A DNA stretch of 47,545 nt from Prevotella sp. (GTDB lineage Bacteria; Bacteroidota; Bacteroidia; Bacteroidales; Bacteroidaceae): the NCBI GenBank assembly GCA_017462915.1, contig JAFTQG010000033.1:1-47545 (forward strand). The letters run 5' to 3'. Both the position numbers and the translations under genes were made by a program. Positions 429 through 45,690 of the stretch are shown in pieces. The notes beneath the pieces are model-generated. The model saw only the letters and a program-made list of their open reading frames with translations, ran no database searches and was not told where the DNA came from. Every line of letters begins with the position of its first letter. Positions within the stretch are counted from its first letter, which is position 1.

Positions 429-790
429 TTTTACGGTTATTTTCGGTTATGCGGTTATGCGGTCATACGAATAACAGTTTCTATTTCTGCTATCCAAACC
501 ACTAAACAACGAAACGACAAAACCACTAACTACAGTTTTACGACCAACAGCTTCTATTCCGGCTATATCGGCTATTCCGGCTATTCCGGCTATCCAAGCA
601 ACCAAACAACTACAGTTCCGGTTAAGCGAGAGCAGAGCAGAGCCAAGCTGGCTTGAACTCTGCCGAACTTTTCGAGTAAGCGAGAACAGTAAAAAGCTTG
701 CTTTTATACTGTCGAGCGAGAGAAAAGTCAAGATTACTTAATCGGAAGGAATTTCGAGCGAAGCTCAAACGACAAAGCCACTAACTACGG
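429..790. repeat. Composite intergenic repeat, copy 1
   Basis: The stretch between the Rpn hairpin and the pyridoxal kinase gene holds no convincing gene. It contains TGCGGTTA octamers (about 445-465), a block of AAACCACTAAAC type, the linker ACGACCAACAGCTTCTATTC, repeated CCGGCTATT nonamers (about 555-600) and a second AACCAAACAAC block. The same modules recur in the same order in other gaps of this window. A less patterned part (about 620-760, with repeated GCGAGAG) follows. Confidence 0.7.
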
Positions 791-1639: not shown

Positions 1640-1915
1640 ATATGCGGTTATGCGGTTATGCGGTTGTGCGGTCATGCGGTTGTGCGGTGATGCGGTTGTA
1701 CGGTTATGCGGTTGTACGGTCATGCGGTTGTACGGTCATGCGGTTGTACGGTCATGCGGTTGTACGGTCATGCGGTTGTACGGTCATGCGGTTGTGCGGT
1801 TGTGCGGTTCTACTACCAACATCTGCTATTCCGGCTATCCACTATCACCAAATATCCAAACCACTAAACCACTAACTACGGTTGTACGGTCATGCGGTTG
1901 CACGGTTTTTATTAT
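1640..1915. repeat. Octamer and 16-bp tandem array with composite repeat, copy 2
   Basis: Bases 1642-1690 are octamers of the type TGCGGTTR. Bases 1691-1786 are six nearly identical 16-bp units (TGCGGTTGTACGGTCA), each built from two octamers. Then come three more octamers, the CCGGCTATCC core (about 1832-1842), AAACCACTAAACC (about 1857-1875) and further TACGGTCATGCGG units. It sits directly upstream of the pyridoxal kinase start codon. No promoter or gene is evident inside. Confidence 0.85.
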
Positions 1916-10162: not shown

Positions 10163-10282
10163 CATATATAATATATAAAAAAACGTAATGGGGGGGGTAA
10201 ATTATAATTATTTAAGATTTTATAACGATGGTTGTGGTTTAGTCGTTTGATGGTTTCGGGGTTGGATGCGCGCGGCAACATC

Positions 10283-10455
10283 TATAGCCCACTGATTTCG
10301 CAGATGACACGGATTTTTCATGTAACCTTAACCATAACGATAACCTTAACCATAATATCTGTGGATATCTGTGAAATCTGTGGGAGATATTAAGCACGCG
10401 GATGACGCAGATTCAGCAGATTTTTCATTTAACCTTAACGGTAACGATAACTCTA
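10283..10455. repeat. 'AATCTGCG' family intergenic repeat, copy B
   Basis: Contains GATTTCGCAGATGACACGG, hexamer tract CCTTAACCATAACGATAA, ATATCTGTGGATATCTGTG, GGGAGATATTAAGCACGCGG, ATGACGCAGATTCAGCAGAT and a second hexamer tract. The same blocks recur in the same order at 11.9, 12.2-12.4 and 13.8 kb. The poly-G run just before it (10191-10197) is separate. Confidence 0.85.
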
Positions 10456-11850: not shown

Positions 11851-11859
11851 GGAAGTTTT

Positions 11860-12050
11860 TTTTTACCTTAACCATAACGATAACCTTAACCATAATATCT
11901 GTGGATATCTATGAAATCTGTGGGAGATATTAAGCACGCGGATGACGCAGATTCAGCAGATTTTTCATTTAACCTTAACCATAACGATAACCTTAACGGT
12001 AACGATAACCTTAACAGAAGGCCAACGACCCACAACCTACAACCGTATGA
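11860..12050. repeat. 'AATCTGCG' family intergenic repeat, copy C
   Basis: Starts directly after the first ATPase gene with CCTTAACCATAACGATAACC and continues with ATATCTGTGGATATCTATG, GGGAGATATTAAGCACGCGG, ATGACGCAGATTCAGCAGAT and hexamer tracts, ending in CCCACAACCTACAACCGT, which resembles the end of the composite octamer repeats. Confidence 0.85.
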
Positions 12051-12110
12051 TATCACGTCACTGCCGAGAAAAACAGCAGCAACGGAATTAGCTGTATTTC
12101 AATATATTAC

Positions 12111-12164
12111 AAAAGGTCACCTTTCACCATGCGGAGGGTGGCCTTTCTATTGGTAAAAGGTGAC
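12111..12164. repeat. AAAGGTCACCTTT palindrome cluster
   Basis: A palindrome AAAAGGTCACCTTT at 12111-12124, followed by GAGGGTGGCCTTTC and AAAAGGTGAC (12155-12164). It can fold as a hairpin with itself or with the later copies, and could act as a terminator after the first ATPase gene. Related clusters occur at 25.87 and 42.3 kb. Confidence 0.6.
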
Positions 12165-12224
12165 ATGTTATCAAGTGAAAGGTTAGGGTTGACGTCGCGC
12201 GGAGAATATGTTGAATCTGCGTGA

Positions 12225-12445
12225 CAATATCCACAGCCCACAGATTTCGCAGATGACACGGATTTTTCATGTAACCTTAACCATAACGATAACCTTAACA
12301 TAATATCTGTGGATATCTGTGGATATCTGTGGAATCTGTGGGAGATATTAAGCACGCGGATTTCGCAGATGACGCAGATTTCCATTTAGCCTTAACCATA
12401 ACGCTGAGCTTAACAGAAGACCCACAACCAATAACCTACAACCGT
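12225..12445. repeat. 'AATCTGCG' family intergenic repeat, copy D
   Basis: Contains CAGATTTCGCAGATGACACG, a CCTTAACCATAACGATAACC tract, a triplicated ATATCTGTGG unit, GGGAGATATTAAGCACGCGG, ATTTCGCAGATGACGCAGAT and CCCACAACC. Copy D has one more ATATCTGTGG unit than copies B, C and E. Confidence 0.85.
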
Positions 12446-13799: not shown

Positions 13800-13935
13800 A
13801 CGACCATAACCCGAACCATAATATCTGTGGATATCTGTGAAATCTGTGGGAGATATTAAGCACGCGGATTTCGCAGATGACGCAGATTTCCATTTAGCCT
13901 TAACCTGAGCTTAACAGAAGACCCACAACCGCACG
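13800..13935. repeat. 'AATCTGCG' family intergenic repeat, copy E
   Basis: A shorter copy with CCATAATATCTGTGGATATC, GGGAGATATTAAGCACGCGG, ATTTCGCAGATGACGCAGAT and the ending CTTAACAGAAGACCCACAAC. Its last half is nearly identical to copy D. Confidence 0.85.
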
Positions 13936-13960
13936 TAACTGACAAAAAAGAGTCGATTTC

Positions 13961-14022
13961 TTGTTTAATTACAGAAAAACGACTATCTTTGCAACCGTGG
14001 TTGATTTTACCACTGTTGCAAA
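13961..14022 (+). promoter_or_regulatory. Promoter with an inverted repeat over its -7 box
   Basis: TTG (13961-13963), 20 bp, TATCTTTG (13984-13991). The TTTG of the -7 box is also the start of an inverted repeat: TTTGCAACCGTGG (13988-14000) and CCACTGTTGCAAA (14010-14022), 13 bp with one mismatch. No gene begins soon after; the next start codon with support is 280 bp downstream, so this is presumably the promoter of the DUF5686-type gene with a repeat-filled leader. Confidence 0.65.
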
Positions 14023-14074
14023 GACGAATGCAATATGAGATTTTATAACGGCTGGAGACATGTGATGACGTAAC

Positions 14075-14300
14075 GACAACCATAACGATAACATTAACCA
14101 TAACATTAACGGCAACCATAACATTAACGGTAAGGGACAAAACCGAAAACCTACAACCGCGTAACCGTAGTTTGTGGTTTGGTGGGTTAGTCGTTTAGAT
14201 AGCCAGAATAGCCGATATAGCCGGGATAGAAGCTGTTGGTCGTAAAACCGCACAACCGTACAACCGTATAACCGCACTCAACCGTAAAAACCGCACATAT
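14075..14300. repeat. Hexamer tract and composite intergenic repeat, copy 3
   Basis: Bases 14075-14130 are CCATAACATTAACGG-type hexamers. Bases 14165-14300 carry the composite element in the reverse order to copies 1 and 2: GTGGTTTGGTGGGTTAGTCG, ATAGCCGATATAGCCGGG, AAGCTGTTGGTCGTA, then AACCGCACAACCGTAC octamers running up to the start codon at 14302. Confidence 0.8.
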
Positions 14301-16829: not shown

Positions 16830-17000
16830 GTAGTTGGTGGTTTAGTGGTTTGGTGGTTTGGTGGTTTGGTGGTTTAGTGGTTTAGTCGTTTGGTGGTTTA
16901 GTGGTTTAGTGGTTTGGGGATAGTGGATAGCCGGAATAGAAGCTGTTGGTCGTAAAACCGTAAAACCACACAACCGTATAACCGTATAACCGCACTTAAC
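16830..17000. repeat. Composite intergenic repeat, copy 4 (clearest copy)
   Basis: Ten octamers of GGTTTAGT/GGTTTGGT type (about 16838-16917), then GGATAGCCGGAATAG, AAGCTGTTGGTCGTA, and octamers of AACCGTAT/AACCGCAC type up to about 17000. It lies between the DUF5686-type gene and the tRNA promoter. Confidence 0.85.
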
Positions 17001-17030
17001 CGTTAAAAATAAATAATCTTTTCTCTGATA

Positions 17031-17088: not shown

Positions 17089-17162
17089 GGACCGGTAGCT
17101 CAGCTGGATAGAGCAACAGCCTTCTAAGCTGTGGGTCAGGGGTTCGAATCCCCTCCGGTTCA
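17089..17162 (+). tRNA. tRNA-Arg, anticodon TCT (reads AGA)
   Basis: A complete cloverleaf of 74 nt: acceptor stem GGACCGG/CCGGTTC with one G-U pair, D arm AGCTCAGCTGGATAGAGC, anticodon stem ACAGC/GCTGT around loop CTTCTAA (anticodon TCT at 17123-17125), and T arm AGGGGTTCGAATCCCCT. The discriminator base is A, and no CCA is encoded. A single gene with its own promoter and terminator. Confidence 0.95.
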
Positions 17163-17176
17163 CTCCCCAAAAAAAA

Positions 17177-19959: not shown

Positions 19960-20080
19960 TATGGTTATATTCAGATAGCCGGAATAGTCTTAATAGCCGG
20001 AATAGAGACGAGTCTGCAAGCAAGCGACCCTTTATCCAGACCACCAGAAGACTAAACGGCCAAACGACTAAGCAGCCACT
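19960..20080. repeat. Composite intergenic repeat, partial copy
   Basis: Contains GATAGCCGGAATAG twice (about 19973 and 19993) and AAACGGCCAAACGACTAAGC, so the core and the octamer arm are present but shortened. It separates prfC from the sigma-like gene. Confidence 0.6.
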
Positions 20081-25902: not shown

Positions 25903-25939
25903 TCGTGTCAAGTGTCACCTCTCACCGGCAGAAAGGTGA

Positions 25940-26105
25940 CCGTTTGGTCGTGCGGTTTTTACGGTTAGGCGGTTGTACGGTTAGGCGGTTATACGGTTAG
26001 GCGGTTTATGCGGTTGTACAAGCAACAGCTGCTATTCCGGCTATCTCTGCTATTCCGGCTATCTCCGTAAAAACCGTACAACCGCACAACCGTATAACCG
26101 CATCA
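25940..26105. repeat. Composite intergenic repeat, copy 5
   Basis: GCGGTTGTACGGTTAG octamers (about 25953-26015), the linker AGCAACAGCTGCTATTCC, the CCGGCTATCTCTG core twice, then AACCGTACAACCGCAC octamers to about 26103. Here both ends carry the CCG octamer and its complement, so the unit could fold back on itself. Confidence 0.75.
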
Positions 26106-26159
26106 ACGTGACCCATCTCAATCATACAGCCACACGGACAAAATTTTTCATACAAATAC

Positions 26160-37164: not shown

Positions 37165-37465
37165 TCAGTTGGTTGTTTGGTTGTTTAGTGGTTTGGTTGT
37201 TTGGTTGTTTGGTTGTTTGGTTGTTTAGTCGTTTGGTTGTTTGGAGGTTTAGTCGTTTGGTTGTTTGGATAGCCGGACCAGCCGTAACGGAAGCTGTTGT
37301 TCGTAGAACCGCATAACCGAAAAACCGTACAACCGTAGTTAGTGGTTTGGTTGTTTAGTTGTTTTGTGAACTAGTTATTTGGTGGCTTGGTTGCTTAATT
37401 ATTCGACTGTTTAGCCTCAACAACCTAAAACCAACAACCCAAAACCATCTAACCGCACAACCGTA
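37165..37465. repeat. Composite intergenic repeat, copy 6 (longest octamer arm)
   Basis: TGTTTGGT/TGTTTAGT octamers (about 37165-37268), GGATAGCCGGACCAGCCG, GGAAGCTGTTGTTCGTA, AACCGCATAACCG octamers, then a second set of TTGTTTAG units (about 37340-37400) and AACAACCTAAAACC. It fills the whole gap between radC and the glycosyltransferase gene. Confidence 0.85.
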
Positions 37466-44536: not shown

Positions 44537-45529
44537 ATGAAACGTACCATTGCTATTGTTTGCGGCGGTGACTCAAGTGAGCACGGAGTGTCAATGCGTT
44601 CCGGACAGGGAGTATATTCCTTCTTCGACAAAGAGCGCTACAACGTATATATCGTGGAGTTCAAGGGAACAGACTGGAAGGTTCATCTCAGCAACGGCGA
44701 CACCGTGAGAATCGACAAGAACGACTTCTCGTTCGTTGAGGACGGCACAAAAAGGACATTCGACTACGCCTACATCACCATTCACGGAGCACCGGGAGAG
44801 AACGGAGTCCTGCAAGGATACTTTGAACTCCTGCATATCCCCTACTCTACAAGCGGTGTGCTCGTGGAAGCACTGACCTTCGACAAGTTCGCTCTCAACA
44901 ATTACCTCCGCGGATTCGGCGTTTCCGTGGCAGACAGCATCCTCGTGCGCCACGGCCATGAGAACGAAATCGACGAGCAGGAGATAGTGGAGAAACTCGG
45001 CCTGCCGCTCTTTGTCAAGCCTGCCGCAGACGGTTCGAGCTTCGGTATCACCAAGGTAAAGGATGCGGACCATCTCGCTCCAGCTCTCAGAAAGGCATTT
45101 CTCGAGAGCAGTGACGTGATGATAGAGGGCTTCCTTGAAGGCACGGAAATCAGCCAGGGATGCTACAAGACACGCAAGAAGAGCGTTGTGCTCCCTGCGA
45201 CAGAGGTTGTCACGGACAACGAATTCTTCGACTATGACGCGAAATACAACGGCATGGTGCAGGAGATAACCCCTGCACGCCTCGCTCCCGAGACAACGGA
45301 GCGCGTGGCGAAGGTGACATCTGCCATCTACGACATACTCCACTGCAACGGCATAATACGCATAGACTACATCATATCCAAGAACGCTGACGGCACAGAC
45401 AAGATAAACATGCTCGAGATAAACACCACTCCTGGCATGACAGCGACATCGTTCATCCCTCAGCAGGTGCGCGCCGCCGGCATGGAGATGAAGGATGTGC
45501 TCTCTGAAATCGTGGAGAACCAGTTCTGA
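44537..45529 (+). CDS. ddl: D-alanine--D-alanine ligase
   Basis: A 330-residue ATP-grasp enzyme that makes D-Ala-D-Ala for peptidoglycan. Landmarks are GGDSSEHGVSMRSG near the start, ITIHGAPGENG (HGxxGE motif), FVKPAADGSSFGITKV (ATP grasp), and LEINTTPGMTATSF with the metal-binding Glu and Asn. All are intact and length is normal. It is the third gene of the PASTA-rluD-ddl run, an order I remember from Bacteroidales. It is followed by an inverted composite repeat, so the next gene may be separate. Confidence 0.96.
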   Translation: MKRTIAIVCGGDSSEHGVSMRSGQGVYSFFDKERYNVYIVEFKGTDWKVHLSNGDTVRIDKNDFSFVEDGTKRTFDYAYITIHGAPGENGVLQGYFELLHIPYSTSGVLVEALTFDKFALNNYLRGFGVSVADSILVRHGHENEIDEQEIVEKLGLPLFVKPAADGSSFGITKVKDADHLAPALRKAFLESSDVMIEGFLEGTEISQGCYKTRKKSVVLPATEVVTDNEFFDYDAKYNGMVQEITPARLAPETTERVAKVTSAIYDILHCNGIIRIDYIISKNADGTDKINMLEINTTPGMTATSFIPQQVRAAGMEMKDVLSEIVENQF

Positions 45530-45533
45530 GTTT

Positions 45534-45690
45534 AGTCGTTTGGTCCTTTAGTGGTTCAGTTGTTTAGTCATGTGCTTTAGGCTTTAAGGCTTTCAGCATA
45601 GGCCACATACAACTAAACAACATAACACCAAAACGACTAAAAGCCCAAACAACTGAACAACAAAACGACCAAACCACAAAATGACCTACA
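45534..45690. repeat. Octamer arm of the composite repeat as a long imperfect inverted repeat
   Basis: The left half (GTTTAGTCGTTTGGTCC, TTCAGTTGTTTAGTC; about 45532-45570) faces its near-complement (AACTAAACAACATAAC, AACAACTGAACAACAAAACG; about 45612-45680). Transcripts could form a long weak stem between ddl and the acyltransferase gene. The CCGGCTAT core is absent. Confidence 0.7.

What the first reader, a model, noticed from the sequence alone, without database searches (positions are those of the whole stretch)
16830..17000. Composite intergenic element with a fixed order of 8-bp arrays around an ATAGCCGGAATAG core
The order (GGTTTRGT)n, ATAGCCGGAATAG, AAGCTGTTGGTCGTA, (AACCGYAY)n is seen here and, whole or in part and in both orientations, at 429-790, 1640-1915, 14165-14300, 19960-20080, 25940-26105, 37165-37465 and 45534-45690. 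Both arms have a period of 8 although their sequences differ. One strand of each arm has regularly spaced GG pairs that could form two-layer G-quadruplexes. It occurs only between genes and flanks two genes on both sides. I know no described element of this structure.
Basis: seen in the sequence. Interest (0 to 1): 0.7.

Follow-up and report, generated by a model that had tools for sequence, protein, structure and literature searches.

The report
Fold-back repeat arrays between genes
Many gaps between genes in this Prevotella genome hold hairpin-like elements built from 8- and 9-letter repeats, and at the same gaps in a sister species such arrays recur with partly or wholly different repeats, an unusual pattern that may affect how the next gene is translated.

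Summary
ATAGCCGGAATAG occurs 230 times in the genome (reversed control 1); in the 543 kb read here 139 of 139 copies lie outside called genes. It is one word of a period-9 array. Arm families vary; the AAGCTGTTGGTCGTA block was found only in this window.

The core word exceeds two copies in 2 of 200 genus genomes. At 114 gaps shared with a sister species (95% identity) 46 are arrayed in both, 7 only here, 1 only there; family sets differ in 36 of 46. Arrayed gaps are 61% identical, others 91%. A relative at 82% has other 8-bp arms in the same layout; one at 86% has other 9-bp arrays.

Between same-strand genes the AC arm before the start codon is longer than the GT arm, and related arrays in viral contigs have an ATG just after the AC strand in 14 of 18 (GT strand 2). 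I read these as fast-turning intergenic satellites whose AC arm serves as a leader; function is inferred. Closest known: G-rich heptamers of Xanthomonas/Nostoc.

The parts
16839..16922 (+). GT-rich arm, about ten (N)GTTT(R)GT units, 17 bases after the stop of the DUF5686 gene
   Evidence: (TRF 16837-16915; gene)
16927..16939 (+). core word ATAGCCGGAATAG (one and a half units of the 9-bp family)
16940..16954 (+). linker AAGCTGTTGGTCGTA; of the 543 kb read, found only in this window
16955..17005 (+). AC-rich arm, AACCGYAY-like units, before tRNA-Arg (17089-17163)
444..593 (-). composite: B-type GT arm 444-456, 9-bp units 481-493, A-type AC arm 496-507, 9-bp core array 554-593
1642..1907 (-). composite: B-type arm in a 16-bp period (1642-1813), core 1826-1838, A-type arm 1858-1875, B units to 1907
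14155..14297 (+). composite: AACCG units 14155-14167, short GT arm, core array 14199-14229, B-type AC arm 14241-14297; core and arms absent at the orthologous site of the sister genome
19958..20075 (+). decayed composite: short GT stretch, core 19975-20005, degenerate AC stretch
25960..26107 (-). symmetric composite: B arm 25960-26019, core array 26032-26062, B arm 26072-26107; RNA fold z -6.9 for 25935-26115
37169..37463 (+). composite: A arm 37169-37268, partial core 37269-37276, B arm 37302-37337, second A arm 37339-37364, B units 37451-37463
45529..45686 (+). two opposed A-type arms without a core

Best explanation
These are intergenic fold-back arrays: a GT-rich short-unit array, a quasi-palindromic 9-bp core array and an AC-rich array fill much of the gap between the ends of two genes. 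SHOWN: strict GT-core-AC order, intergenic confinement, sites shared but repeat families changed between two sister species, other families in relatives, and a gene-direction bias in same-strand pairs. INFERRED, origin: array families form a library shared within the genus; copies spread and turn over at DNA level by array-mediated exchange, steps of about 16 bp and occasional template-switching insertion, not by a Y1 transposase. INFERRED, function: in the transcript the AC-rich, G-poor arm is the leader just before the start codon, in a phylum that initiates without Shine-Dalgarno; when the upstream gene is read through, the GT arm just after its stop codon can pair with that leader, so the hairpin can hold back the downstream gene unless a ribosome reaching the upstream stop opens its base (coupling or insulation). 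Selection would keep the layout while letting the letters change.
For: Order rule 67 to 0 over 151 core segments, also in convergent gaps, 9 to 0, where no start codon is near. Core word 139 of 139 outside genes; array marks of at least 40 bp in 114 of 276 gaps and 0 of 276 coding stretches; in those 114 the array edge lies a median 12.5 bp from stops and 16.5 bp from starts (upper quartiles 58 and 102). Shared sites: 114 orthologous gaps, both 46, own only 7, sister only 1, neither 60, flanks 95%; gap identity 0.61 with arrays (n 48), 0.91 without (n 54), p 6e-12. Family sets differ in 36 of 46; of 42 with an arm family in both, 9 share none, e.g. C38:160743, 162870, 165645. Other families: 9-bp GTCAGTACT in G125, some at gaps orthologous to own arrays; 8-bp GTTGACRA in G272, 4 of 4 opposed pairs obey the rule, that unit in 49 of 398 genus genomes. 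Gene direction: 95 same-strand arrayed gaps have 4.71 AC against 2.91 GT units (p 9e-5), 17 convergent 3.35 and 3.35; the 60 nt before starts are 75% A+C with 10% G (gaps of 120 bp or more). RNA fold median z -6.2 with core and arms (55 gaps), -2.5 core only (13), -2.8 arms only (18), -1.8 neither (86). Viral contigs: an ATG ORF 2-80 nt downstream of the AC strand in 14 of 18, of the GT strand in 2 of 18.
Against: No expression data. In same-strand gaps with a core the transcript folds better than its complement in only 8 of 62 (p 2e-9; without arrays 26 of 62, p 0.04), so the transcript hairpin is not maximised. Arms also occur at convergent gaps, where a leader makes no sense. Promoter-like TAnnTTTG in sense is in 13 of 95 arrayed and 27 of 81 unarrayed same-strand gaps, so a free leader from an internal promoter is not the common case, although in core gaps 13 of 15 such words lie between core and start. 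Left and right arms match in family only moderately (33 of 58 against 25.0, sd 3.2; best of 10,000 shuffles 38) and are no more complementary within a site than between sites of the same family. Turnover is incomplete: family sets are identical at 10 of 46 shared sites; of 11 sites with all four arms typed, none switched in 5, one side in 3, both in 3; same-family AC arms are more alike at orthologous than at other sites for A (n 4, mean rank 0.92), not for B (n 5, 0.53). In G125 the paired layout is thinly shown (one opposed pair). The template-switch origin rests on one site. The viral contigs carry mostly single AC arrays, not fold-backs, and two of the 18 (both misses) share one sequence.
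Confidence: 0.42

Rival explanations
1. A non-autonomous mobile element (MITE or bacterial analogue of a foldback transposon) inserts as a whole GT-core-AC unit and is moved in trans by a transposase.
For: Order rule 67 to 0, also between convergent genes; dispersed copies; core above two copies in 2 of 200 genus genomes; one 27-bp GT array sits in a 39-bp duplication that the sister genome lacks. Eukaryotic foldback elements also have inverted repeats that contain tandem units (PMC4079207, passages read).
Against: No fixed terminal sequence: arms differ in family and length. 46 of 54 arrayed sites are shared with the sister. None of the 8 one-sided sites read shows a complete element with a simple short target duplication. 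No PF01797 (Y1) transposase in G000 or G060; other transposase families were not searched.
Confidence: 0.25
2. Neutral satellite-like repeats: slippage and exchange between gaps with no function; coding constraint confines them to gaps.
For: Low identity of arrayed gaps, variable copy number, signs of two-unit steps (lag-2 excess z 3.1 at position 1 and 1.7 at position 6, neighbours slightly unlike at lag 1, z -1.7 and -2.2), patchy spread across species.
Against: Neutral slippage does not predict the 67 to 0 order, longer AC arms toward start codons in same-strand but not convergent gaps, AC arrays before ATG in viral contigs, or the same opposed layout built from another 8-bp unit in G272 (4 of 4 pairs).
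Confidence: 0.25
3. Bidirectional transcription terminators or REP-like 3' mRNA stabilisers.
For: Strong hairpins; arrays per kb of gap are lowest in divergent gaps (0.74, against 1.34 convergent and 1.89 same-strand).
Against: The transcript strand folds better than its complement in only 8 of 62; arrays are present in 11 of 34 divergent gaps; at C38:49612 a GC-rich hairpin shared by three species already follows the stop and the array lies beyond it (read by eye); AC arms abut start codons.
Confidence: 0.06
4. G-quadruplex-forming control elements.
For: GG pairs recur in GT arms; G-rich heptamers elsewhere form quadruplexes in vitro (PMC4692102, abstract read).
Against: The GG-forming positions are the two free positions of the A unit, G in only 0.47 and 0.48 of 554 units.
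Confidence: 0.02

Closest known systems
G-rich heptamer repeats (GGGNATC) of Xanthomonas and Nostoc (PMC4692102, abstract read)
   Same: Short-unit tandem arrays over-represented in non-coding DNA, preferably between aligned ORFs and under-represented between divergent ones; G-rich on the sense strand near stops and on the antisense strand upstream of ORFs.
   Different: There a 7-nt G-rich array with a preference for four units and quadruplex formation; here 8-bp arms of several families paired around a 9-bp core as a fold-back, GG rather than GGG, and family change between sister species.
TAACTGA heptamer repeats of Beggiatoaceae, Cyanobacteria and five Bacteroidetes (PMC4679880, abstract, section 9 and passages read)
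   Same: Mostly intergenic direct repeats ending a few nucleotides before start codons, patchy across lineages, suggested role in translation.
   Different: [quoted passage not shown] no opposed arms around a core described in what I read.
REP / BIME with RAYT transposase (PMC2817692, abstract read)
   Same: Many extragenic, palindromic, species-specific mosaic copies.
   Different: Units are period-8/9 arrays rather than 20-40 bp palindromes (size from PMC3733652, abstract start seen in a listing); no Y1 transposase in the genome.
Foldback transposons (Tetris, Galileo; PMC4079207, passages read, part of the abstract among them)
   Same: Inverted arms holding tandem repeats around a middle part, satellite-like turnover.
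   Different: Eukaryotic, with repeat units of about 220 bp in Tetris and target duplications; here about 100-300 bp in all, bacterial, no transposase or simple target duplication shown.
Tandem repeats of Borg elements (PMC9879509, passages read, part of the abstract among them)
   Same: Fast-evolving, arising independently in relatives, composition bias toward A on the ORF-carrying strand.
   Different: Perfect repeats, about half inside genes, no fold-back pairing in the passages I read.
Neisserial intergenic mosaic elements (recalled, no paper read)
   Same: Composite intergenic repeats flanked by inverted parts.
   Different: As recalled, unit sequences are fixed there and there are no 8/9-bp arrays.

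Membership tests
G-rich intergenic SSR (Xanthomonas/Nostoc kind) | tandem short units over-represented in non-coding DNA | tested here: met
   139 of 139 core words outside genes; 114 of 276 gaps against 0 of 276 coding stretches
G-rich intergenic SSR (Xanthomonas/Nostoc kind) | G-rich on sense after stop, on antisense before start; fewer between divergent ORFs | tested here: met
   62% G+T in the 60 nt after stops, 75% A+C before starts; arrays per kb of gap: same-strand 1.89, convergent 1.34, divergent 0.74
G-rich intergenic SSR (Xanthomonas/Nostoc kind) | 7-nt unit with G tracts suited to quadruplexes | tested here: not met
   main units of 8 and 9 bp; GG positions of the A unit are the variable ones
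REP/BIME with RAYT | Y1 tyrosine transposase (RAYT) in the genome | tested here: not met
   PF01797: 0 matches in G000 and G060; control genomes ring in 5 of 14
REP/BIME with RAYT | 20-40 bp palindromic unit | tested here: not met
   period 8 and 9 arrays
MITE | fixed terminal inverted repeats | tested here: not met
   arm family and length vary; 33 of 58 matched arms
MITE | target-site duplication at a new insertion | tested here: inconclusive
   8 one-sided sites read; one 39-bp duplication around a 27-bp array, no complete element with a simple duplication
Foldback transposon | inverted arms made of tandem repeats | tested here: met
   67 to 0 order; but same-site arms are not mutually more complementary than cross-site arms
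Foldback transposon | mobility by a transposase | not tested
   only PF01797 was searched
Rfam RNA family | match above gathering score | tested here: not met
   only the tRNA-Arg matches in the window

The most novel reading that the evidence does not exclude
A layout-conserved, sequence-free genetic element: across part of the genus Prevotella the same intergenic sites carry a GT-core-AC fold-back whose repeat letters are replaced from a shared library of 8- and 9-bp families, kept because the AC arm is the downstream gene's leader and the GT arm gates it. That would be a noncoding feature conserved as architecture rather than sequence, invisible to homology search.
Probability: 0.27. Interest if true: 0.85.

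Novelty: new variant of a known kind. Interest (0 to 1): 0.62.

Why it matters
If right, it shows intergenic DNA in which layout is conserved while sequence is replaced within a few percent of coding divergence, something sequence-conservation scans would call neutral. It links scattered reports of 7-bp arrays near start and stop codons to one orientation rule and makes a testable claim about translation initiation in a phylum without Shine-Dalgarno sequences.

Tried and rejected
REP/RAYT mobilisation: no Y1 transposase in the genome. Snap-back copying of one arm from the other: same-site arms are no more complementary than cross-site arms. G-quadruplex: see unit composition. RNA-stability selection on the transcript: the antisense strand folds better. 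Simple 8-bp slippage: neighbouring units tend to differ. Known RNA family: none in the window at gathering score. Virus-borne core: 0 viral contigs with the 22-base core; arms alone in 6 and 12 contigs. A generic GT-run then AC-run test gave 32 GT-AC and 0 AC-GT in G000, 29 and 2 in G060, and too few in G125 (1 and 0) and G144 (none). A decline of core density away from parS: dropped once coverage was allowed for. The array survey in other genomes was small, 20-43 kb in 15 of 20 genomes, so absence there is weak. Gene calls are my own codon-score ORF calls; starts are sometimes cut short, and 28 of 151 core segments touch a called gene.

Full report
WHAT IS THERE. The window is a whole contig (C10) of a 2.93-Mb genome, G000. 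The sister genome G060 is a Prevotella: four of its contig lengths (21,008, 4,611, 8,451, 17,595) equal those of MAG SC0317_S2_2; the tool places G060 in the genus of G000. The element at 16830-17000 is as described. The core word occurs 230 times in the genome against 1 for the reversed control. In 543,242 bases read in detail (window plus parts of C14, C16, C25, C26, C30, C38), 139 of 139 core words lie outside called genes, with 23% of bases uncalled.

ANATOMY. The core is one word of a 9-bp array (ATAGCCGGA, ATAGCCGAT, ATAGAAGCT, ATAGAGGCT), whose frame ATAGNNNCT is its own reverse complement (read by eye). The arms are arrays of A units, NGTTTRGT, or B units, RCGGTTDT, or 6- and 7-bp GGTT kinds. 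In 554 A units, positions 2-5, 7 and 8 are 0.90-0.98 constant (partly by the way arrays were picked), while position 1 is G/T/C 0.47/0.37/0.15 and position 6 is A/G 0.47/0.48. Over 151 core segments the flanks are GT-AC 67, AC-GT 0, AC-AC 7, GT-GT 5, GT on the left only 19, AC on the right only 18, AC on the left only 4, GT on the right only 2, neither 29. The rule holds in convergent gaps, 9 to 0, so it does not come from start codons alone. Arm families match in 33 of 58 composites (shuffled 25.0, sd 3.2). RNA folds of gaps with core and arms have median z -6.2 (n 55) against -1.8 without arrays (n 86). The copy given in the finding is a weak example (z -1.67); 25935-26115 is a strong one (z -6.9).

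PLACE. Of 276 gaps of 50-1500 bp, 123 hold an array family: 95 of 210 same-strand, 17 of 32 convergent, 11 of 34 divergent. In the 114 gaps with at least 40 marked bases, array edges lie a median 12.5 bp from stops and 16.5 bp from starts. The core is unevenly spread: 98 of the 230 exact cores are in the 200 kb of C38 that I read, 7% of the genome. C38 holds the genome's only matches to a parS-like word, at 125814 and 126849 (motif recalled), beside mnmG, uvrC and polA. It is therefore probably near the replication origin (inference), although dnaA is on C43. Within C38, allowing for coverage, core density shows no clear gradient from parS: 0.68, 0.55, 0.53, 0.33, 0.35, 0.50 per kb in 20-kb steps.

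SPREAD. The core word exceeds two copies in 2 of 200 genus genomes, G000 and G060 (35). A 22-base form is found only in MAG SC0317_S2_2 among the genome contigs scanned, records very near the window possibly being left out, and in no viral contig. The A-arm pattern of three units: G000 286, G060 14, six other close relatives 0; reversed control in G000 17. Relatives carry other families. G125 (86% in RF3) has 9-bp arrays of GTCAGTACT type, some at gaps orthologous to arrayed gaps here; opposed arms around them are shown at only one place by pattern. G272 (82%) has GTTGACRA arms opposed by TYGTCAAC around a spacer, 4 of 4 opposed pairs in the rule order. That unit is in 49 of 398 genus genomes, up to 119 matches in G272 and 102 in G086, with reversed-control matches in three genomes. 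Pieces of 40 kb from ten other complete genomes showed no such 8-bp arrays beyond one AT-rich hit.

TURNOVER. At 114 orthologous gaps of G000 and G060 (flanks 95% identical, 903 kb of G060 examined), arrays are in both at 46, G000 only 7, G060 only 1, neither 60. Family sets are identical at 10 of the 46; of 42 with an arm family in both species, 9 share none; the core is in both at 26. Global identity is 0.61 for arrayed gaps (n 48) and 0.91 for the rest (n 54), p 6e-12. At C38:160743 both arms are B here and 7-bp kind there; at 162870 A here and B there; at 165645 A here and 7-bp kind there. With all four arms typed (11 sites), both sides switched in 3, one in 3, none in 5. Same-family AC arms are closer at orthologous than at other sites for A (n 4), not for B (n 5). 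Against G125, 24 of 30 arrayed gaps have none of the G000 families, by patterns that do not count G125's own 9-bp arrays. Of the 8 one-sided sites, one may show a birth: at C25:90829 a 27-bp array of 6-bp units lies between two copies of a 39-bp unique stretch that is single in G060, as expected of template switching with filler. Two (C30b) look like chance pattern hits; at the other five the gap is replaced or decayed rather than cleanly empty.

GENE DIRECTION. In 95 same-strand arrayed gaps AC units outnumber GT units, 4.71 to 2.91 per gap (p 9e-5); in 17 convergent gaps both are 3.35. In gaps of 120 bp or more the 60 nt before starts are 43% A, 32% C, 10% G; in unarrayed gaps 35, 21, 19. 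The transcript strand folds better than its complement in 8 of 62 core gaps, against 26 of 62 unarrayed ones. Independently, 12 viral contigs with A-type arrays and 6 with GTTGAC arrays (two of the 12 share one sequence) have an ATG ORF of 60 aa or more starting 2-80 nt after the AC strand in 14 of 18, after the GT strand in 2 of 18. Bacteroidetes initiate without Shine-Dalgarno, tuned by structure and by A residues (PMC6847099, abstract read). This supports a leader role for the AC arm. The gating role of the GT arm is inference from position and pairing. Promoter-like words are scarce in arrayed gaps (13 of 95 against 27 of 81), which favours coupling within operons; where they occur in core gaps, 13 of 15 lie between core and start.

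KNOWN. The orientation rule for single arrays is printed for Xanthomonas and Nostoc heptamers (PMC4692102, abstract). Start-adjacent heptamers are printed for Beggiatoaceae and some Bacteroidetes (PMC4679880). I saw no paper on the paired fold-back form or its turnover in the listings. I file it as a new variant of intergenic short-unit arrays. On checking, the odds of the boldest reading were lowered from 0.30 to 0.27, because full arm-family replacement was counted at 9 of 42 sites and the paired layout in G125 is thin.

Noticed in passing
window 10261-10445, 11858-11985, 12074-12430, 13803-14092: Another dispersed intergenic repeat (ATATCTGTGGATATCTGTG ... CGCAGATGACGCAGATT with 6-bp TAACCN arrays), several copies in this window and in the sister genome.
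   Followed up: no
window about 610-785; also C38 about 56100-56300 and 171300-171500: A repeat of roughly 170 bp (AGCTTCGCTCGA ... AGCGAGAGCAGAGC) sits inside or beside the arrays in G000 and is missing at the two matching G060 sites read.
   Followed up: partly
G060 loci L092, L105, L106: A palindromic repeat of about 200 bp with GTAGGGACGTACCGTGGTGCGTCC-like ends lies within arrayed gaps at sites where G000 has none.
   Followed up: no
C38 125814 and 126849 (L066): Two parS-like words, the only matches in the genome, beside mnmG and uvrC; C38 is by far the richest contig read, and its densest 10 kb (13 core words) is 130-140 kb.
   Followed up: partly
window 1642-1813: B-type arm with a 16-bp period (10.8 copies), fitting two-unit growth steps.
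   Followed up: partly
G000 C58 216-253: One array of the GTTGACRA family of other species is present in the own genome.
   Followed up: no
C25 90829-90933: A 39-bp duplication around a 27-bp GT array; in the sister genome the stretch is single and without array. The duplicated part holds a TACCTTTG promoter-like word.
   Followed up: yes
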